Source: a virus. From it: a stretch of DNA of 36,503 nt. This document shows, one piece after another, positions 1 to 36,503 of this stretch (position 1 is the first letter of the stretch; each line of letters opens with the position of its first letter). Made by a program: the position numbers and the translations under genes. Below the pieces are notes generated by a model, which worked only from the letters and a program-made list of their open reading frames with translations, ran no database searches and was not told the origin of the DNA. The DNA lies in the IMG/VR virus record IMGVR_UViG_3300042870_000165, positions 1 to 36,503 of that record. One strand, 5' to 3'.

Positions 1-140
1 TTTCAATGCTATCTTTGTCATTGCTACCTCCCATACCTCTTGCTTGTATATGATGTATGTCAACAGCCTTTGAGCCGCAACTTTCACAAGGTATGAAGTC
101 TTCAATACCATAACCGAAGTATTCTAAATAGATTTTAGTA
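1..140. repeat. Left copy of 140-bp terminal redundancy
   Basis: Bases 1-140 match 36364-36503 over their full length with one difference (T at 14, C at 36377). The repeat ends exactly at the window end and the HNH gene reads in frame across the join. This fits a circular or circularly permuted genome whose ends overlap in the assembly, rather than two functional copies. The single difference is synonymous (Lys AAA/AAG on the minus strand) and probably reflects variation in the population. Confidence 0.9.
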
Positions 141-866: not shown

Positions 867-1129
867 AATTCCCATTTGTTTGTGATTAAATCCTCTACAT
901 ACAAGTATATAAAGGGGGTTATACTACTTATAAATATAGCATCTAGCAAGTTTGTTTTAATCAATAAAGAAAAAAAGCATATCCAAAAGGACATACAGAA
1001 TGCACAACTAAATGGTTTTTGCATATTCAAACCTGTCCATTTCTTGAAATATACCGGCACTTTTAGGATATAGAACCAAATCAGGGTCAATCCTATTGCT
1101 CCTAGTATACTAACGATTCCTTGATACAT
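863..1129 (-). CDS. Small multi-spanning membrane protein with PFSCAFC motif (88 aa)
   Basis: Three hydrophobic stretches (about residues 5-22, 43-57 and 62-78) predict an integral inner-membrane protein. Between the first two lies a short loop with KPFSCAFCMSFW, placing C42 and C45 at a membrane edge. The pattern suggests a specific metal or disulfide site rather than a plain pore. It sits between the sigma-like gene (overlapping it by 28 nt) and the CxxC gene (ATGA overlap). It is far from the lysis genes at 10-11 kb, so I do not call it a holin. Host takeover or superinfection exclusion would fit its early position, but this is a guess. Confidence 0.7.
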   Translation of the reverse strand: MYQGIVSILGAIGLTLIWFYILKVPVYFKKWTGLNMQKPFSCAFCMSFWICFFSLLIKTNLLDAIFISSITPFIYLYVEDLITNKWEL

Positions 1130-1587
1130 TTTCTTATGTTTTTAATCGTAATAAAAATTGAGGTATGAGGTATGCCGGTTTGTGCAGATACTTTGCGTAC
1201 ACTTCCTAGTTCAATGTACATCTTTAATATTTCTCTGTCATACCAATATAAATCATTCATTTTCTTTGTAATATTGTCAACGATATGTTGGTCATCACTT
1301 ATCTCCTCCTCCTCTGCTACAAACCTTGTTACATCTTCAACAGGTATCAAGGACTTATACATTCTACCAAACTTACCGTATTTTGAATTGGTTTGGTTAC
1401 AACATATTCTCACAATCCAAAACTTAAAAACCTGCTTTCCTTTACTTTCTAACTCTGTAATCTTATCCTTGTCATACTCTAGGACTATGAGTGCAATTTC
1501 CTGCCGCAAATCCTCCCACAAGTCTTTGCCGATATTCTTGAATGCTAGTTCAAACTCCTTGTCATATATCCAATCAATCGCTTTCAA
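1102..1587 (-). CDS. Sigma-70-like transcription factor
   Basis: A 161-residue protein with the layout of a small sigma factor. The N-terminal helical part (about 1-70; DWIYDKEFELAFKN, DLRQEIALIVLEYD) resembles sigma region 2. An acidic linker (about 88-100) is followed by a C-terminal helix-turn-helix (about 128-155, SVRKVSAQTGIPHTSIFITIKNI) resembling region 4. Such proteins are common in Bacteroidota phages and may redirect host RNA polymerase to later promoters. No ATG is available at the beginning of the frame, so translation probably starts at TTG (1587), preceded by AAGGAA, unusual in this genome. It overlaps the VRR-NUC gene by 14 nt. Confidence 0.65.
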   Translation of the reverse strand: MKAIDWIYDKEFELAFKNIGKDLWEDLRQEIALIVLEYDKDKITELESKGKQVFKFWIVRICCNQTNSKYGKFGRMYKSLIPVEDVTRFVAEEEEISDDQHIVDNITKKMNDLYWYDREILKMYIELGSVRKVSAQTGIPHTSIFITIKNIRKCIKESLVY

Positions 1588-2005: not shown

Positions 2006-3364
2006 TTAAAATTCATGTTCTTTGAATCCCATGCATTCTCCTATAAATTTAAACGGTAGTGTTTTAAGTGAACCATGCCTGTTCTTACCTATCTTCACTA
2101 CACAAATACCATCACTAGGATATGTGCTACCTCGTATTTCAATCTCCTTGATATTATAGGTTTCGGGTCGCATTAAAAATATCACACTATCGGCATCTTG
2201 TTCAATACTACCACTCTCACGAAGGTCAGACAACTGTGGCAATTTATCATTCCTTGATTCAACTGCTCTACTTAGCTGAGACAAGGCTAATACAGGGATA
2301 TTTAATTCCTTTGCTATAATCTTACAACCTCTACTTATCTCCGAAATTTCGGTCTCTCTAGTGCCTTTTCGGTCAACTCCTGACATTAACTGTAGGTAGT
2401 CAATACAAAGAAACTTGATACCATACTTCCGTTTCATGATAGTAGCCTTACTTCGCAAATCTCGTATATTCAAACTAGGGGTGTCATCAATATACAATGG
2501 GAATTTTTCCATCCTTGCCTCTGATTTCATCAACCTGACTACCTCCTCCTCAACTAAATGATTATGCCTAAGTTTGCTGTGAGCAATACCACTATCTAAA
2601 CTAAGCAATCTGTTAACTAGCTGTTCTCCACTCATTTCTAAGCTAAAAATACCAACCGGTATCTGTTGCTTGAGTACATTGATAATAGTATTAAGCATAA
2701 ATGCTGTTTTACCTTGTGCCGGTCTAGCTGCTAGTACAATTAGGTCAGGAGCAACCCAACCACTGATTAATGCATTCAGACTATTGTATCCTGTATTGAT
2801 ACCAATTTGCCCATCTGCTGTACTTCGGTCTCGCTGTTTTGCTAGTTCAAATAGATAGTGAACCATGTTTTTCTCCGTATTCTTAAATACATTTTCTTGA
2901 GCATTAAGAATATTGCTACTAGCCTTGTTAAGAATTGCATCAGCATCTTGTCCTGTATAGCTATCCATTACTAATTGCTGTCCAATAGTTATGCCCTGCC
3001 TTTGTAAATAATAGGTTTGCAGAATCTTAATCCAATCAGGCAAATGTGCTGAACTTACAACATTATTAGTCATTTTAACTAATTCATAAGCACCGCCAAC
3101 TAATTCTATTAAGTTATTCTTAGTCAAGTAGTTATTAACTGTAACTAAGTCAATTGCAGAACTATTGTCATACAAATACTGAATAGCCTTGAATATAGTG
3201 TTATGCGGAGTCTGATAAAAAAAGTCTGCACTTAGCTTATTCATGCTATCATGTACACAACTTTGTTCAATCAATAGAATGCCTATAACACAGGTTTCTA
3301 CTTCTTTTGAGTGTGGAGGTACTTTTGCATAAAAGACATCCTCCTTTGGCTTTGTTTGCTTCAT
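2006..3364 (-). CDS. dnaB: Replicative DNA helicase, DnaB family
   Basis: The 452-residue protein matches DnaB in order and length. The N-terminal helical domain (about 15-105) contains KEVETCVIGILL. The RecA-like motor domain has Walker A RPAQGKTA at 214-221, Walker B FLCIDYLQL at 318-326, a DLRESGSIEQDAD loop around 380-392, and the KIGKNRHG arginine-finger region at 424-431. It is a hexameric 5'-3' helicase that unwinds the phage replication fork. Its ATG overlaps the stop of the helix-turn-helix gene upstream as ATGA. That neighbour is the likely origin-recognition or helicase-loading partner. No separate primase is recognisable. Confidence 0.95.
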   Translation of the reverse strand: MKQTKPKEDVFYAKVPPHSKEVETCVIGILLIEQSCVHDSMNKLSADFFYQTPHNTIFKAIQYLYDNSSAIDLVTVNNYLTKNNLIELVGGAYELVKMTNNVVSSAHLPDWIKILQTYYLQRQGITIGQQLVMDSYTGQDADAILNKASSNILNAQENVFKNTEKNMVHYLFELAKQRDRSTADGQIGINTGYNSLNALISGWVAPDLIVLAARPAQGKTAFMLNTIINVLKQQIPVGIFSLEMSGEQLVNRLLSLDSGIAHSKLRHNHLVEEEVVRLMKSEARMEKFPLYIDDTPSLNIRDLRSKATIMKRKYGIKFLCIDYLQLMSGVDRKGTRETEISEISRGCKIIAKELNIPVLALSQLSRAVESRNDKLPQLSDLRESGSIEQDADSVIFLMRPETYNIKEIEIRGSTYPSDGICVVKIGKNRHGSLKTLPFKFIGECMGFKEHEF

Positions 3365-3786
3365 ATTACTAATTTTTTAATCGTTACATCCCTATTCTCT
3401 TTGTTATTAAATACTTTGTTATTACTTTCCGGATTTTTAGGGGGAGGGGTATCCGGATTTTTCCGGAGAGGTATCCGTTTAAATAGGGGTAGGGTCTTTA
3501 TCTTAATCTGCCTTTTCTCAATTTGCTGAGTCTTCTTATTTCTAATCAAATCTCTTACAATTACACCTTTAGTTTCCAAAATCGTAATGTTATCTGATAT
3601 AGTTTTAGCCGTAAGATTGAGACAAGTACCCAAGTACTGATTACTTGCATAGCAATAACCTTTGTGATTTGACAAATTTGATATTAGAGCAATCAACAAC
3701 TTTTGAGTGCTACTAAGCGTTTTGTCTAACAGAATCTCTGCAGGGATTACAGCATACCAATTATGCTGCACATTTTCATTTGTCAT
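3361..3786 (-). CDS. Helix-turn-helix replication-initiator-like protein (HTH_36 type)
   Basis: A 141-residue protein. Residues about 10-100 form a winged helix of the type in phage replication-initiation and DnaD-like proteins: NWYAVIPAEILLDKTLSSTQKLL, then YCYASNQYLGTCLNLTAKTISDNI with ETKGVIVRDL as wing. The C-terminal part is basic and proline-rich (about 105-125) and looks unstructured, suitable for contacting helicase. The ATGA overlap with dnaB supports co-production of an origin binder and helicase. The gene starts only about 10 nt after a strong terminator hairpin, which suggests that its expression is controlled by readthrough. Confidence 0.75.
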   Translation of the reverse strand: MTNENVQHNWYAVIPAEILLDKTLSSTQKLLIALISNLSNHKGYCYASNQYLGTCLNLTAKTISDNITILETKGVIVRDLIRNKKTQQIEKRQIKIKTLPLFKRIPLRKNPDTPPPKNPESNNKVFNNKENRDVTIKKLVI

Positions 3787-3795
3787 ATATCTAGG

Positions 3796-3825
3796 TTAAA
3801 AAAGGAGAGCATCATACTCTCCTTT
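3796..3825 (-). terminator. Intrinsic terminator between two HTH genes
   Basis: On the minus strand a 9-bp perfect stem (AAAGGAGAG / CTCTCCTTT, 3817-3825 with 3801-3809) closes a 7-nt loop and is followed by a run of T. It begins 4 nt after the stop of the 76-aa HTH gene and ends about 10 nt before the ATG of the replication-initiator-like gene. That leaves little room for a new promoter. Confidence 0.85.
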
Positions 3826-3829
3826 AGGG

Positions 3830-4060
3830 TTAATTCAATTCAATCAGTCTCTTTCTTTTGGAATAGCTAAGTTTTATATACTCAGCCTCCTCTAACTTTG
3901 ACAACCAATTGGATATACTAACACTAGTTACATTAAACTGAACTGCCAACTGCTCATTTGTTGCTTCAATCTTTTTCTTCTCTGCAATATATACGAACAG
4001 AATCTTAGCCGAACTCGGTATCTGTGTGTCGTAAAATATTTTTTCTTTGCTACTAATCAT
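3830..4060 (-). CDS. Small winged-helix DNA-binding protein (76 aa)
   Basis: The entire 76 residues form a winged helix: SSAKILFVYIAEKKK (helix 1), ATNEQLAVQFNVTSVSISNWLSKLEEAEYI (helix-turn-helix) and LSYSKRKRLIEL (wing). The fold is that of the N-terminal domain of the neighbouring 141-aa protein without its C-terminal tail, so it may be a paralogue. It could act as a regulator of the replication genes or compete for the same DNA sites. It lies between another HTH gene and a terminator, which points to a regulatory cluster. Confidence 0.75.
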   Translation of the reverse strand: MISSKEKIFYDTQIPSSAKILFVYIAEKKKIEATNEQLAVQFNVTSVSISNWLSKLEEAEYIKLSYSKRKRLIELN

Positions 4061-4061
4061 C

Positions 4062-4316
4062 TTACTTGTTTATTTGGTTATAAATTTTAACTGAATCTTT
4101 GAAATTAAGCACTGTGAACTTACCGTACTTCATTTTCCTGCCGAACTTATTTGTATGCTGTACATTATCACATAGTACAACAACTCCTTTGTTTCTTAGC
4201 TGACTAATCTTTGATGTTGGGTTAAGAACTCCATGCTTGATTATATCAAGACTTGTTCTGTCTTGCTCTAGCAATAGGTACAATACCTCTGCTAACTGTG
4301 TTTTTGGCTGTTTCAT
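4062..4316 (-). CDS. Helix-turn-helix protein (HTH_39-like, 84 aa)
   Basis: Residues about 5-50 (TQLAEVLYLLLEQDRTSLDIIKHGV followed by KISQLRNKGVVV) match the small HTH_39-type winged helix frequent in phages of Bacteroidota. The C-terminal half (HTNKFGRKMKYGKFTVLNF) forms the basic wing. It most likely binds DNA as an early regulator. It is the first gene after a candidate promoter at 4372-4400, and its stop lies 1 nt before the next ATG, so it heads a short operon of two HTH genes ending at the 3.80-kb terminator. Confidence 0.75.
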   Translation of the reverse strand: MKQPKTQLAEVLYLLLEQDRTSLDIIKHGVLNPTSKISQLRNKGVVVLCDNVQHTNKFGRKMKYGKFTVLNFKDSVKIYNQINK

Positions 4317-4371
4317 TTTTTTACGATTGTTTTAATTAGGAAATAAAATTCCAACGATAGGTAAACGACTA

Positions 4372-4400
4372 TAAAGATAGGTATGCTGATTAAAAAAAAA
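4372..4400 (-). promoter_or_regulatory. Candidate promoter before the HTH_39-like gene
   Basis: On the minus strand a T-rich tract lies about 18 nt upstream of TATCTTTA, followed by a leader of about 55 nt to the ATG. The same TATCTTTA octamer occurs at 8863. The box is in a genuine gap (4317-4422), which raises its credibility. Confidence 0.45.
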
Positions 4401-4407
4401 CGCATAC
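4381..4407. repeat. Inverted repeat overlapping the promoter region
   Basis: GTATGC (4381-4386) and GCATAC (4402-4407) are perfect inverted arms around a T/A-rich 15-nt centre. The repeat covers the -33 side of the candidate promoter, so it may be an operator for one of the adjacent helix-turn-helix proteins. It is not followed by a T run and is unlikely to be a terminator. Confidence 0.35.
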
Positions 4408-4422
4408 ATTGAAAAAATATTT

Positions 4423-4815
4423 TCATCTCTTGATTGTTTTAACTCTATGAATGCTGTGCAATATTGTAGTATGGTCTCTTTTCAAGTACCTACCAATTTC
4501 AGATAGTCCAAATCCTTCTTTGTAGGCATCTACACAAAACCGGTTACGCAAGGTAAGCACCTCAGTCTTTCTTGACCTCAATGCTACCTCGCTGTAACTA
4601 GTCTCGTTTTCAACTAACCATCTTGCTGCCCATTTCTTAATAGATTCAGAACTTTTCTTCTTTTGTATCAGTACTTCTTTAGTATTTTCAACTACTTTTA
4701 TAACCTCTCTTTCCAATATCAAGCCATCCATAACTGCTTCAATTCTTTTCAATGTGTAATCATTGCATCCTGTATACAATTGAATGTACTTGAGTATTGT
4801 TTTTACTTTCTCCAT
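4423..4815 (-). CDS. Orphan DnaA domain IV-like DNA-binding protein
   Basis: The C-terminal half of this 130-residue protein carries the origin-binding signature of DnaA domain IV. TLRNRFCVDAYKE is followed by LSEIGRYLKRDHTTILHSIHR at 104-124, matching the usual EIG..L..RDH(S/T)TVLHA pattern. The AAA+ ATPase of DnaA is absent. The N-terminal half is helical and basic (KKKSSESIKKW). A free DnaA-box binder could mark the phage origin, recruit or block host DnaA, or act as a repressor. It lies between the recombination genes and the HTH cluster and overlaps the YqaJ gene by 13 nt. Confidence 0.8.
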   Translation of the reverse strand: MEKVKTILKYIQLYTGCNDYTLKRIEAVMDGLILEREVIKVVENTKEVLIQKKKSSESIKKWAARWLVENETSYSEVALRSRKTEVLTLRNRFCVDAYKEGFGLSEIGRYLKRDHTTILHSIHRVKTIKR

Positions 4816-5447
4816 TTGCTTAATAATAAATCATGGGTATTGGTTATAAACTTAGCTGATGCATCCAACCTTTCAACTAATAACTGCATATCTTCTAGGT
4901 TTGCAGGGATTCGTAGGATAAACATTTTCAATCCTTCAGGCATATCCTTGCAGTAGCTAACAAAATCACAGAATGCTCTATCTGATACAAGCATATCTGA
5001 TTGACATTGCCAATAGTACTCACGATATTTCTTCTTGAAGTAATCAACATCATCTACTAATCCATAGTTAATATGGTTTACATAATTCCATGGACATTTA
5101 ACTTGAATGATTCCATCATCATTTACAAAGCCATCAGGTGTGCCACCATACAAGCCTTTTATCATTTCAATAAAACCTGCCTCTCCAACTACATTGCCGG
5201 TTAACTGAGCATAGTAATTAAGTGCTTCTCCTTCTAATTCAAGTCCATGGGTTGTAGCATCACTTTTGTAGTCTCTCTGTACTCCTGATAGCCTTTCAGC
5301 TAACTTAGACATAAGATAGTCCTTAGTAGTGCTTGACAATTCTCCTTCTTTTTTCGTTTTAGGTTCTACTATCAAATTCCATATAGTACTGCTAGTAATT
5401 TTGCCTAATCTAGCATTGAACCATTCTTGACTATACTGCTCTATCAT
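4803..5447 (-). CDS. YqaJ-like viral recombinase / lambda-type 5'-3' exonuclease
   Basis: The 214-residue protein has the YqaJ/lambda-exonuclease layout: QEWFNARLGKITSS at the N-terminus, THGLELEGEA around 66-75, GGTPDGF with D105, and IIQVKCP with K117. The usual catalytic ExK appears as Q115-V-K117. Late helices include YYWQCQSDML. It would resect double-stranded ends for single-strand annealing by the Erf protein encoded just upstream, with a 17-nt overlap. The pair forms a classic phage recombination module. Confidence 0.9.
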   Translation of the reverse strand: MIEQYSQEWFNARLGKITSSTIWNLIVEPKTKKEGELSSTTKDYLMSKLAERLSGVQRDYKSDATTHGLELEGEALNYYAQLTGNVVGEAGFIEMIKGLYGGTPDGFVNDDGIIQVKCPWNYVNHINYGLVDDVDYFKKKYREYYWQCQSDMLVSDRAFCDFVSYCKDMPEGLKMFILRIPANLEDMQLLVERLDASAKFITNTHDLLLSKWRK

Positions 5448-6009
5448 TTAATAAAATTTCAATTGTTTTTAAATCTTTTTCTCTGAAAACAAAATGCTTT
5501 GCTGCCTTGTCAAATACATCTTCTTCTCCACCATTAAATCTAGCTACTAGCTTGAGCATTGTAACATCATTTACATAGGCAACTTTATCCTCAGGTTCTT
5601 CATTTTTAACAACCTTTGAAATATTAGCCTTTTCCTTTACAACTTGTGTACCGGCTGCATCTGTGTCTTTGTCAGTTACTAAGCCTAACATACTAGATAG
5701 TGCATATCTTCTGTAATATGTAACACCTGAGCCAAATGCTTGGTAATCATTCATATTGCCTAACGATACTTGAGGAATTGGAGTCTTTGCTACAATTTTT
5801 TCTTCTGATGGAATATGATACAAAATAGTTTCAATACAACCATCAACTAATGGCTGTATGACAACTAAACCATGCTTTTCCAACAATGGATTAATTACAC
5901 TGTAAATCTTAGGCAAATCTGCATAGGTGTATTTATGTCCTTGCGTGTCTTTGTGAATTATTGGGCATTCCATCTGAAATGCTGACAATGCGGTCATTAT
6001 ATTTTTCAT
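5431..6009 (-). CDS. erf: Erf-family single-strand annealing protein
   Basis: I start this gene at the ATG at 6009, 1 nt after the upstream stop. The 192-residue protein has the Erf core: KYTYADLPKIYSVINPLLEKHGL in the first third, then QAFGSGVTYYRRYALSSMLGL and TDKDTDAAG. Erf forms rings that anneal complementary strands during circularisation and recombination. The C-terminal part (about 125-192) is charged and variable, as usual for the family. It overlaps and is probably coupled to the YqaJ exonuclease. Confidence 0.92.
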   Translation of the reverse strand: MKNIMTALSAFQMECPIIHKDTQGHKYTYADLPKIYSVINPLLEKHGLVVIQPLVDGCIETILYHIPSEEKIVAKTPIPQVSLGNMNDYQAFGSGVTYYRRYALSSMLGLVTDKDTDAAGTQVVKEKANISKVVKNEEPEDKVAYVNDVTMLKLVARFNGGEEDVFDKAAKHFVFREKDLKTIEILLNDRAV

Positions 6010-6010
6010 A

Positions 6011-6232
6011 TTATCCAAGTGGGGTTAAGGTTACATTAATACCATTCTTACTTGATTCTAAATAACCACTACCTTCATCTAGTACAAAAACAAAACCTAA
6101 CTCCTTTAGCTTATTATAAGTTCTGCCGTAATAACGACCTTGTAATCTTATTTCAGACTCATACAAAGTGATTGCATAAAAATCATTCATATCTATGTTA
6201 AGCATAGACAACTTTTCAACTTGTTCTTTCAT
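6011..6232 (-). CDS. Small protein of unknown function before erf (73 aa)
   Basis: A 73-residue protein without cysteines or membrane segments. It has a compact alpha/beta look (NDFYAITLYESEIRLQGRYYG, RTYNKLKELGFVFVLDEG) and is similar in size and pattern to small proteins that precede recombination genes in related phages. I cannot assign a function. The start at 6232 follows a leader carrying the CAAATCAA motif (plus strand 6238-6245). The stop lies 1 nt before the erf ATG. Confidence 0.7.
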   Translation of the reverse strand: MKEQVEKLSMLNIDMNDFYAITLYESEIRLQGRYYGRTYNKLKELGFVFVLDEGSGYLESSKNGINVTLTPLG

Positions 6233-7782: not shown

Positions 7783-7815
7783 GGTAGTACGCAGGTTATA
7801 GAGACTGCTCCTCTT

Positions 7816-7828
7816 TTGATTTGATTTG
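7816..7828 (-). promoter_or_regulatory. Tandem CAAATCAA motif in the DUF932 leader
   Basis: Two overlapping copies of CAAATCAA (plus strand TTGATTTG at 7816-7823 and 7821-7828) lie between the candidate promoter and the DUF932 start. The same motif occurs just upstream of the starts at 499, 6232, 6825, 20301 and 33961, the last again as a tandem. The position within transcribed leaders suggests a role in translation or RNA binding rather than an upstream operator. Confidence 0.45.
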
Positions 7829-8827: not shown

Positions 8828-8862
8828 AATCGTGTGTTTTATTGGTTTGTAATATTGTCTAA

Positions 8863-8893
8863 TAAAGATACGGAGGATATTTGAATAAATAAA
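8863..8893 (-). promoter_or_regulatory. Candidate early promoter in the 8.83-8.94 kb gap
   Basis: On the minus strand TTTA (8890-8893), 19 nt, then TATCTTTA (8863-8870), with a leader of about 35 nt to the first early gene. The gap upstream (8894-8944) is a very A/T-rich tract following the late terminator, which could act as an UP-like element or as an easily melted origin region. No DnaA-box cluster is evident there. Confidence 0.5.
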
Positions 8894-8944
8894 GTTTTTT
8901 TTAAAATATTTTTTAAATTATTTTTTAGTTCTGTATACAGGGCA

Positions 8945-8968
8945 TAAAAAAAGCACCTTTCAGTGCTT
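8945..8968 (-). terminator. Terminator of the late operon
   Basis: On the minus strand AAGCAC / GTGCTT arms (8963-8968 and 8951-8956) enclose a 6-nt loop and are followed by seven T. It begins 2 nt after the stop of the last late gene and separates the late genes from the early promoter. Confidence 0.85.
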
Positions 8969-8969
8969 C

Positions 8970-34610: not shown

Positions 34611-35366
34611 TTAAAATGGTATTTTTAATGTTCTTTCGTATTCATTAGCTAGGCTTTTCCTCATACTTGTAGCCTTCTTTCTTTGTATTGCTGCTCCAAA
34701 ATACTCCTTCAATAAATAGTAATCCTTTCTTTCAGTATCTAGTGTTCTATGTTCTGCCATTCCTCCGGTAGATATAAATGTACCCTCCTTGCTAGTAAAA
34801 GCATACCTAGTGTTTATAAAACATTTGCGGTGAAAATGTGCATTGATTGCTGAGACAAAGAAATCACAAGCAGATACACATTCATCAGGCAGTATCATTT
34901 TGAATCCTTCAAAGAATCCCATGCTACCACCAATAGCAAAGCCTGACAACTTATAAGGTTTCATGCTTGAATAGTCTACCGGTCTTGCTGTGTTGCTGAA
35001 TCCAAACATCATACAACCTGCCTCTCTTGCTGTGAATGCTGTACTTTGTATAATATCATAAGCAGTATCCATATCAATCCTGCTGTTCTCATCAAATTCC
35101 TTGTCAATATAAGTCCTACTCATCTTATTCAAGTCATCATCTAGCATTACACAATTAGGATACTTTTCATGCACCCATCTCATCTTTGCACTTAGTCCTT
35201 TGATTGAATCAGGGTGTGCTATAATCTCTACATCTCCATTGTATTTTAGATAGTCTTCAACTTGACTTTCCGGAATACATAAGGAGCAATTACTAATGGT
35301 TTCCAATGTGTCCACTTTGTTGCTCCTTTTATGGGATAGTATAATCAACTTAACTACTTCTTTCAT
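34611..35366 (-). CDS. GT-A-like glycosyltransferase family protein
   Basis: I start at ATG 35366. The 251-residue protein begins KLIILSHKRSNKVDTLETI, a beta-alpha start of a nucleotide-sugar transferase, then HPDSIKGLSAKMRWVHEKYPNCVMLDDDLNKM, with the metal/nucleotide-binding DDD at 76-78 as DxD motif. The later half has FAIGGSMGFFEGF, CDFFVSAINAHFHR and a basic C-terminus. It resembles phage GT-A-like enzymes, including those linked to modified DNA bases, but the acceptor is not deducible. It lies between the ParB-like and methyltransferase genes. Confidence 0.65.
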   Translation of the reverse strand: MKEVVKLIILSHKRSNKVDTLETISNCSLCIPESQVEDYLKYNGDVEIIAHPDSIKGLSAKMRWVHEKYPNCVMLDDDLNKMSRTYIDKEFDENSRIDMDTAYDIIQSTAFTAREAGCMMFGFSNTARPVDYSSMKPYKLSGFAIGGSMGFFEGFKMILPDECVSACDFFVSAINAHFHRKCFINTRYAFTSKEGTFISTGGMAEHRTLDTERKDYYLLKEYFGAAIQRKKATSMRKSLANEYERTLKIPF

Positions 35367-35967
35367 CAAGTATCTTTTTAAAGTCTGCGAATGTTACTAC
35401 TCTGCCTTGTCCTACTTTGCTACTCTTGTAATCCTTTTGGTCTGACAAATTAAAAAAAGTCTTCAAGTATGAATACTCAATTTCATTGTCTACCATTATC
35501 ATAACATAGTCGTGCTTTTCTGACAATCTAGGTGCAATAGGATATATGCAATCCTCGTCATCCTCCTGCTCAGTTCTTAGTTCTTCAATCTCCTGAATTG
35601 CTAAGTCTGTTGCTCCTAAACCCCAATCAAGTAACTTGTTTAAATCCCATTCATTTGCTAACATCTCAGCATCCCAAGTACCAAAGTTTACATTATCCTT
35701 AATGATAAACTCTTTTTGCTCCTCTGCTGTTAAGTCCTCAGCCATAACAATAGGCACTTCCTTTAGTCCTGCTTCTTTACAAGCCTTTAGCCTCATGTTA
35801 CCACCTAGTACAACCATCTTGTCGTTTACAACAATTGGTCTTAACTCTAGCATTTTAGGGAATTGCTTAATAGAATTTACTAGCTTGTAAAACTTGTTAT
35901 TCTTGATTATTCTAGGGTTCTCAGGGTTTGACCTAATCTCCGATATTTTCACTAATCTGCTCTGCAT
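35350..35967 (-). CDS. ParB/Srx-like domain protein (205 aa)
   Basis: The first ATG is at 35967; a longer frame begins with TTG. Residues 3-95 have the ParB N-terminal fold: KISEIRSNPENPRII (7-21), LRPIVVNDKMVVLGGNMRLKACKEAG (42-67, with the nucleotide-binding GGNMRLKA element) and IIKDNVNFGTWDAEML. Free-standing ParB-fold proteins in phages often act as CTPases, nucleases or partners of DNA-modifying enzymes. The C-terminal half (115-205) is acidic then basic and has no known domain. It begins the accessory cassette and overlaps its neighbours on both sides (35 and 17 nt). Confidence 0.82.
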   Translation of the reverse strand: MQSRLVKISEIRSNPENPRIIKNNKFYKLVNSIKQFPKMLELRPIVVNDKMVVLGGNMRLKACKEAGLKEVPIVMAEDLTAEEQKEFIIKDNVNFGTWDAEMLANEWDLNKLLDWGLGATDLAIQEIEELRTEQEDDEDCIYPIAPRLSEKHDYVMIMVDNEIEYSYLKTFFNLSDQKDYKSSKVGQGRVVTFADFKKILDERSS

Positions 35968-36270: not shown

Positions 36271-36503
36271 CTAACTTGTGTTTATGCTTATTGATTAAAT
36301 ATTCCATGTGAGTCTTCGTATCTCCCATAACAGTATGACAATACCTGCACAATGCCATTAGGTTTTCAATGCTATCCTTGTCATTGCTACCTCCCATACC
36401 TCTTGCTTGTATATGATGTATGTCAACAGCCTTTGAGCCGCAACTTTCACAAGGTATGAAGTCTTCAATACCATAACCGAAGTATTCTAAATAGATTTTA
36501 GTA
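36257..36503 (-). CDS. HNH endonuclease, C-terminal part (continues at 1-151)
   Basis: This is the remainder of the 85-residue HNH endonuclease beginning at 151. In this copy residues 5-85 can be read: C22/C25, H33-H34, N51, and the second zinc pair C56-x2-C59 followed by H60, and a basic end (NKHKHKLDGKR). The complete N-terminus is at the other end of the window. The full motif order C-x2-C, HH, N, C-x2-C-H is that of a compact zinc-stabilised HNH nuclease. Confidence 0.85.
   Translation of the reverse strand, partial: TKIYLEYFGYGIEDFIPCESCGSKAVDIHHIQARGMGGSNDKDSIENLMALCRYCHTVMGDTKTHMEYLINKHKHKLDGKR
36364..36503. repeat. Right copy of 140-bp terminal redundancy
   Basis: Duplicates bases 1-140 with one synonymous difference (C at 36377, T at 14). 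Removing one copy gives a circular unit of 36,363 bp, with the HNH gene intact. Confidence 0.9.

What the first reader, a model, noticed from the sequence alone, without database searches (positions are those of the whole stretch)
4423..4815. Orphan DnaA domain IV encoded by the phage
The signature LSEIGRYLKRDHTTILH is clear while the AAA+ domain is absent. It may recognise DnaA boxes at a phage origin or displace host DnaA.
Basis: partly seen in the sequence, partly recalled or inferred. Interest (0 to 1): 0.55.

Follow-up and report, generated by a model that had tools for sequence, protein, structure and literature searches.

The report
Phage DnaA-type DNA-binding protein, no ATPase
A virus of bacteria carries a small protein that is only the DNA-reading end of the bacterial replication starter DnaA joined to its own short helical tail; such fragments are already on record in phages, but this family is steadily kept beside the phage's recombination and replication genes, and its job is untested.

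Summary
Observation confirmed. ORF 4423-4815 (-), 130 aa, is a stand-alone DnaA domain IV without AAA+: Pfam Bac_DnaA_C E 4e-6, below the curated cut-off; by structure, ranks 1-5 are all DnaA (Z 7.6-8.9, next 5.8). It also has a conserved N-terminal helical hairpin. Five of six published DnaA-box contact residues are kept. The gene is a core part of an early cassette: 54 of 55 loci found by the neighbouring YqaJ gene alone carry it. Eighteen chosen sister records with a 75-78% identical sigma-like gene lack it; five, compared whole, also lack the window's YqaJ-to-DnaB genes. So it most likely serves replication/recombination as an ATPase-free DNA-site reader; an unrelated orphan DnaA domain IV in Polaribacter phage P12002L also sits near an HTH_36 replication gene. 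Canonical DnaA boxes are absent from the window and scarcer than expected in carriers, not in non-carriers, a lead only. The 4.35-kb 'gap' encodes a membrane-type peptide; a canonical DnaA-box origin there is not supported. Host-oriC binding or GafY-like transcription control remain open. New family of a known kind.

The parts
4423..4815 (-). orphan DnaA domain IV gene, 130 aa
4726..4812 (-). codons 2-30: N-terminal helical hairpin (helices 2-15 and 19-30), family motif LKYIxLYTxC
   Evidence: AlphaFold model; conservation
4450..4641 (-). codons 59-122: DnaA domain IV fold
4465..4479 (-). codons 113-117 RDHTT, equivalent to E. coli DnaA R432-T436
   Evidence: alignment to 1j1v; counts
4313..4426 (-). 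37-aa membrane-type peptide gene filling the supposed gap; overlaps the domain IV stop and the next start by ATGA
   Evidence: present in 10 of 10 relatives translated (alignment); a similar peptide frame is kept in L223, which lacks the domain IV gene
4803..5447 (-). YqaJ-type exonuclease, immediate upstream neighbour, overlaps the domain IV start
   Evidence: Pfam E 6.9e-12; 54 of 55 loci
5431..6018 (-). ERF single-strand annealing protein
   Evidence: Pfam E 7.7e-26
4062..4316 (-). 84-aa conserved neighbour, family unknown
   Evidence: no Pfam hit; synteny
3830..4060 (-). 76-aa HTH protein resembling part of phage replication initiators
   Evidence: phrog_270 E 1.6e-7; HTH families below their cut-offs
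3361..3786 (-). 141-aa HTH_36 replication-initiation-like protein
   Evidence: phrog_19658 E 1.7e-15; HTH_36 E 3e-8
2006..3364 (-). DnaB replicative helicase
   Evidence: PF03796 E 8.6e-88
1102..1587 (-). ECF-sigma-like protein shared with phages that lack the domain IV gene

Best explanation
An ATPase-free DnaA domain IV DNA-binding protein of the phage's own early recombination/replication cassette. The C-terminal HTH reads a short duplex site that differs between phage clades. The conserved N-terminal helical hairpin binds a partner or oligomerises, so that the protein marks a phage site (most likely where replication starts) for the phage's initiator and helicase proteins. Shown here: domain architecture, conservation, cassette membership. 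Inferred: DNA binding, partner binding, the origin role.
For: DnaA fold and contact residues. The gene lies in a row ERF - YqaJ - domain IV - membrane-type peptide - 84-aa - 76-aa HTH - HTH_36 initiator-like - DnaB. 54 of 55 loci ascertained by YqaJ alone carry it next door. Natural swap: of 18 records chosen from the sigma-like hits (sigma-like gene 75-78% identical to the window's), 0 carry it. Five of the 18, compared whole by tblastn, all share TerL (85-86%) and sigma-like (75-76%) genes, and none matches the window's YqaJ, domain IV, 84-aa, 76-aa, HTH_36 or DnaB proteins. So it goes with the cassette, not with the late or sigma-like genes. Independent parallel: Polaribacter phage P12002L gp46, named 'replication initiation protein', is an orphan Bac_DnaA_C protein of another family, two genes from gp44, a 'primosomal protein' with HTH_36, the Pfam family of the window's 141-aa protein.
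Against: In group B (0 of 19 records with DnaB_C) the gene sits with other replication genes (primase/polymerase-type protein and SF2 helicase in 7 of 7 records searched), so no single helicase is its fixed partner. An ERF relative (38-40%) remains in 2 of the 5 records without the gene, so the swap is not a clean whole-module exchange. No box array or iteron was found as a target. L223 lacks the gene. No binding data exist, and co-location does not prove a role.
Confidence: 0.42

Rival explanations
1. GafY/GafA-like transcription regulator: the DnaA-type HTH binds upstream of phage promoters and the N-terminal hairpin contacts RNA polymerase or a sigma factor.
For: Orphan DnaA-type DBDs act this way in gene transfer agents: the GafA N-terminal domain resembles the DnaA DBD, with a sigma-like C-terminal region (PMC6363796, passages); GafY binds RpoD domains 3-4 (PMC11150451, passages). 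A sigma-like protein (TIGR02937 matched by 8 of 12 members, best 5.3e-6, the window's own 0.0023 and below the cut-off; SigW in PDB E 0.023) is encoded in groups A and B, and a similar one is seen by eye in the one group C genome listed. In the group B genome listed (G024) the domain IV gene is the last of a leftward operon convergent with late genes.
Against: The sigma-like gene persists without it in 18 of 18 chosen records, and TerL with it in 5 of 5 compared; it is not adjacent to the sigma-like gene; no shared promoter-proximal site was found.
Confidence: 0.22
2. Host-directed: the protein occupies DnaA boxes at the host origin and blocks or misdirects DnaA; the phage genome is poor in boxes to spare its own DNA.
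For: The window keeps R399, D433, H434, T435 and H439 equivalents. TTWTNCACA is scarce in group A ORFs: 11 against 33.6 (sd 4.8) in codon-preserving shuffles, 0 of 60 shuffles as low. Phages without such a protein show no shortage: group D 18 against 13.8, five flavobacterial phages 29 against 29.1. P12002L, with its own orphan DnaA domain IV, has 0 against 3.4, 0 of 60 shuffles as low.
Against: Groups B and C replace D433 and T435 equivalents in most members, yet keep the gene and are also short of boxes (15 vs 24.9; 15 vs 34.6), so the shortage does not track the reading residues. phi10:1, also a carrier, is not clearly short (5 vs 6.5). With 1-mismatch TTATCCACA sites group C shows no shortage (101 vs 95.6). 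The reversed control pattern is also lowish in A, B and C (18 vs 25.3, 21 vs 28.1, 25 vs 33.6) and very low in D (2 vs 10.0). Records are related, so counts are not independent. For the window alone 0 against 2.4 is not striking.
Confidence: 0.2
3. Accessory of the annealing/exonuclease system or a decaying relic with no specific site.
For: Sits next to ERF and YqaJ; absent in L223 with neighbours kept.
Against: 54 of 55 retention; R399-, R407- and H434-equivalents almost invariant.
Confidence: 0.1

Closest known systems
DnaA domain IV (1j1v, 3pvp; Pfam PF08299)
   Same: fold, HTH, R399/R407/D433/H434/T435/H439 equivalents in the window
   Different: no AAA+ domain III; P423 equivalent is Ser; own N-terminal hairpin; score below the Pfam cut-off
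Orphan phage DnaA-type proteins: P12002L gp46, phi10:1 gp034, Pelagibacter phage Skadi DnaA-like protein, many BFVD entries named 'Chromosomal replication initiator, DnaA C-terminal'
   Same: stand-alone DnaA-type DBD encoded by phages
   Different: P12002L and phi10:1 proteins are not hit by the family profile; phi10:1 gp034 belongs to phrog_16091, not hit by the window protein. In BFVD the one match at E 0.001 or better is A0A6J5S6H9, 130 alignment columns, 38% identity, 'Uncharacterized protein'
GafY (earlier HdaB) / GafA of gene transfer agents
   Same: DnaA-type DBD in a phage-like element; a sigma-like protein in the genome (passages)
   Different: Alphaproteobacterial; sigma-like part is fused or in the same two-gene operon there and distant here; no direct sequence comparison made

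Membership tests
DnaA chromosomal replication initiator | AAA+ domain III | tested here: not met
   130-aa ORF, no AAA+ hit; TIGR00362 17.4 bits against cut-off 343.9
DnaA chromosomal replication initiator | domain I helicase/partner-binding domain | tested here: inconclusive
   N-terminus is a ~30-aa hairpin; not folded or searched alone (barely covers it)
Bac_DnaA_C (PF08299), curated membership | profile score over the curated cut-off | tested here: not met
   27.1 against 31.5 bits; of 22 relatives 17 match at E 10 or better, 3 are over the cut-off, 5 do not match
DnaA domain IV fold | structure closest to DnaA domain IV | tested here: met
   ranks 1-5 all DnaA, Z 7.6-8.9, 70-76 residues aligned; Foldseek alone has DnaA on top but at E 0.3-0.4 (first model)
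DnaA domain IV, canonical box reader | base-contact residues R399 P423 D433 H434 T435 H439 | tested here: inconclusive
   5 of 6 kept in the window, P423 is Ser; D433/T435 vary in relatives
GafA/GafY activators | sigma-like partner fused or adjacent | tested here: not met
   sigma-like gene ~2.8 kb away, and found without the domain IV gene in 18 of 18 chosen records
GafA/GafY activators | binding to RNA polymerase sigma and promoter | not testable with these tools
   needs experiment
phrog_27829 DnaA-like replication initiation protein | PHROG profile match | tested here: inconclusive
   window protein gives only a transposase family, E 0.0043, up to E 0.1

The most novel reading that the evidence does not exclude
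A two-part, ATPase-free initiator family: a fixed hairpin module recruits a conserved partner while a re-specified DnaA domain IV reads clade-specific phage origins, and genomes carrying such orphan DnaA readers shun ordinary DnaA boxes to keep DnaA-type proteins off the rest of the phage DNA.
Probability: 0.14. Interest if true: 0.7.

Novelty: new variant of a known kind. Interest (0 to 1): 0.4.

Why it matters
Stand-alone DnaA domain IV proteins are common in phage records but, in the papers seen here, only the GafY type has a worked-out role. This family suits a test: a clear modular layout, clades with different contact residues, one natural absence (L223), and sister phages with similar late genes but without the gene. 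If it initiates phage replication it would be a DnaA-type reader working without the ATPase; if it targets host boxes it would be a phage way to steer host initiation.

Tried and rejected
DnaA-box arrays in the named gaps: none. The raw dinucleotide-null shortage in the window (0 vs 6.4; rank 3-6 of 1680 anagrams) shrank to 0 vs 2.1-2.4 under codon-preserving shuffles, so avoidance is not claimed from the window alone. The close relative G001 is not short by the 1-mismatch measure (11 vs 13.4).

Mended on checking: P12002L was first counted among six 'controls' (29 vs 32.0); a later search showed that it carries its own Bac_DnaA_C protein (E 1.8e-13), so it was moved to the carriers and the five others recounted (29 vs 29.1). 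phi10:1 was kept out of the controls from the start for the same reason. The P12002L cassette raised the best explanation from 0.40 to 0.42 and lowered transcription control from 0.25 to 0.22.

An early claim that the N-terminal motif is more conserved than the HTH (entropy 0.37 vs 1.07) was partly ascertainment, since the scan used that motif. Columns outside the pattern gave 0.29, but in the YqaJ-ascertained set the two are equal (0.94 vs 0.92).

Sigma-like protein as obligate companion: rejected. Group C intergenic TTATTCACA/TTATCCACA sites upstream of the VRR-NUC gene overlap a promoter-like sequence and are not taken as an origin (by eye). Hosts: two genome-contig scans gave no close family member (none; nine partial or weak hits). 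Rfam: no match at gathering scores. tRNAs: none. Literature: the listings of nine searches showed no paper on this family; most subscription papers are not held, and the HdaB paper was not held.

Shuffle tests used 10 of the 14 group A records held (G003, G006, G007 and G031 left out), 7 of 19 group B, 10 of 14 group C, 5 of 18 group D. Density counts left out G031, whose contact residues differ, and were typed by hand.

Full report
Observation. The window is an IMG/VR virus record of 36,503 bases whose ends repeat 140 bp at 99.3% identity, which suggests a complete, terminally redundant or circular genome. ORF 4423-4815 (-) encodes 130 aa. Pfam matches are Bac_DnaA_C E 4.2e-6 (27.1 bits, cut-off 31.5) and HTH_38 E 9e-6, and PDB searches by sequence are mixed, so sequence alone leaves doubt between HTH families. 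The second AlphaFold model (38 sequences, mean pLDDT 82.8) has helices 2-15 and 19-30, a stretch without predicted helix, and a domain at 59-122. VIA-align places five DnaA entries first (Z 8.9 to 7.6) and then drops to 5.8.

Residues. Published E. coli contacts are R399, P423, D433, H434, T435 and H439 (PMC7561715, passage). By the 1j1v alignment the window has R82, S105, D114, H115, T116 and H120. Over 38 family members: R399-equivalent R 37 of 38; R407-equivalent 38 of 38; H434-equivalent 38 of 38; D433-equivalent D 17, N 16, C 4, H 1; T435-equivalent T 17, A 13, S 8. In a second set found only by the neighbouring YqaJ gene (45 unique sequences plus the window): D433-equivalent H 29, D 15, S 1, K 1; T435-equivalent S 30, T 15, one gap; R407-equivalent 46 of 46; H434-equivalent 45 of 46, the exception being a sequence cut by its contig end. 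So some contacts are fixed and the reading residues change by clade.

Family and context. Scans gave 15 and then 69 viral loci; of 64 loci printed, 60 have both modules. Group A (window type) has DnaB (9 of 9 records) and group B has none (0 of 19); group B carries instead a primase/polymerase-type protein, an SF2 helicase and an exonuclease (7 of 7 records searched each) and a PD-(D/E)XK protein (6 of 7). Group C was found through YqaJ; the one genome listed has YqaJ, the domain IV gene, proteins like the 84-aa and 76-aa neighbours, a different initiator-like protein and a DnaB-like helicase (by eye). In the YqaJ-ascertained loci with 450 bp or more downstream, 54 of 55 have the domain IV gene next to YqaJ. 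The exception, L223, runs from YqaJ straight into a membrane-peptide frame and the 84-aa gene.

Natural swap. Eighteen chosen records carrying a sigma-like gene 75-78% identical to the window's have no match by the family profile or by PF08299 (0 of 18 each; the first had no positive control within it, the second rang in control genomes). Five of them, compared whole by tblastn with 28 window proteins, keep TerL at 85-86% and the sigma-like gene at 75-76%; none matches the window's YqaJ, domain IV, 84-aa, 76-aa, HTH_36 or DnaB proteins at E 1e-4, though 2 of 5 keep an ERF relative at 38-40%. The family profile run on those five in a separate script also found nothing while finding the window at E 1.8e-53. 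The gene thus belongs to the YqaJ-to-DnaB cassette. This argues against a sigma-partnered late activator and for a role in replication or recombination, though group B shows that no one helicase is required.

A parallel. Polaribacter phage P12002L gp46 is a 159-aa protein with Bac_DnaA_C as its only Pfam match (46.1 bits, E 4.9e-12). The record names it 'replication initiation protein' and the genome paper lists a 'replication initiation protein DnaA' (PMC4615864, passage). Two genes on, gp44 'primosomal protein' has HTH_36, like the window's 3361-3786 protein. The family profile does not hit it, so an unrelated orphan DnaA reader sits in a similar setting.

Gaps and boxes. The 4.35-kb gap is an ORF, 4313-4426 (-), 37 aa, mostly hydrophobic, overlapping both neighbours by ATGA, and present in 10 of 10 relatives translated. 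The 8.9-kb gap (8828-8969) has a hairpin followed by T and a sequence like the TAnnTTTG promoters of Bacteroidetes (read by eye; the promoter consensus is recalled). TTWTNCACA: 0 in the window, 6.4 expected by dinucleotide shuffles, 2.1-2.4 inside ORFs by codon-preserving shuffles. Pooled in ORFs, carriers: A 11 vs 33.6 sd 4.8 (10 records); B 15 vs 24.9 sd 4.1 (7 records); C 15 vs 34.6 sd 5.5 (10 records); P12002L 0 vs 3.4 and phi10:1 5 vs 6.5. Non-carriers: D 18 vs 13.8 sd 3.0 (5 records); five flavobacterial phages 29 vs 29.1 sd 4.8, none with a whole PF08299 match (one has a weak 35-codon piece with a stop, E 0.002). Against a simple reading: 1-mismatch TTATCCACA sites are short in A (64 vs 104.8) and B (48 vs 76.1) but not in C (101 vs 95.6); the reversed pattern is lowish in A, B and C and very low in D (2 vs 10.0). 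Whole-record densities per kb: A 0.041 (13 records), B 0.089 (19), C 0.073 (14), D 0.099 (18); reversed pattern 0.059, 0.104, 0.079, 0.043. Scaled by the reversed pattern, A, B and C are lower than D (Fisher p 0.007, 0.002, 0.015), but related records make these p values too small, D's reversed pattern is itself odd, and the effect does not follow the reading residues. I treat box avoidance by carriers as a lead.

Known relatives. Many BFVD entries are named 'Chromosomal replication initiator, DnaA C-terminal'; phi10:1 gp034, P12002L gp46 and the Skadi pelagiphages are annotated cases, and PHROGs holds a 'DnaA-like replication initiation protein' family. The best-studied orphan DnaA-type DBD found is GafA/GafY (passages); PMC9632790 (passage) says GafY was earlier named HdaB. 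The kind is therefore known; the hairpin module, the clade-wise change of contact residues and the cassette behaviour are what this family adds.

Verdict. Real, modestly interesting, function open: phage replication/recombination-module DNA reader 0.42, transcription regulator 0.22, host oriC effector 0.2, accessory or relic 0.1.

Noticed in passing
window 4313-4426 (-): Unlisted 37-aa membrane-type peptide gene conserved in group A (10 of 10 relatives translated); a similar frame is kept where the domain IV gene is missing (L223).
   Followed up: partly
window 1-140 and 36364-36503: 140-bp terminal direct repeat, 99.3% identical: the record is probably a complete circular or terminally redundant genome; an HNH-like frame lies at the ends (by eye).
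   Followed up: partly
window 1102-1587 (-): ECF-sigma-like protein family, 214 relatives in viral contigs, about 27% identical between groups A and B.
   Followed up: partly
window about 7783-7820 (-): Leader before the DUF932 gene with a GCAG...CTGC pairing seen by eye in 8 of 9 aligned rows, not L012; no Rfam match.
   Followed up: no
L223, about 600-725: Natural absence of the domain IV gene with both flanking genes kept.
   Followed up: yes
G036:C1:22673-22724 and similar sites in other group C records: TTATTCACA or TTATCCACA in a short gap before the VRR-NUC gene of several group C phages, overlapping a promoter-like sequence.
   Followed up: partly
L114 (P12002L) 34903-35382: Another orphan Bac_DnaA_C protein beside an HTH_36 replication gene; its genome of 48.7 kb has no TTWTNCACA at all.
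   Followed up: partly
window 3787-3829: Inverted repeat GGAGAG...CTCTCC followed by T, terminator-like, between the 76-aa and 141-aa genes (by eye; not listed by the scan).
   Followed up: no
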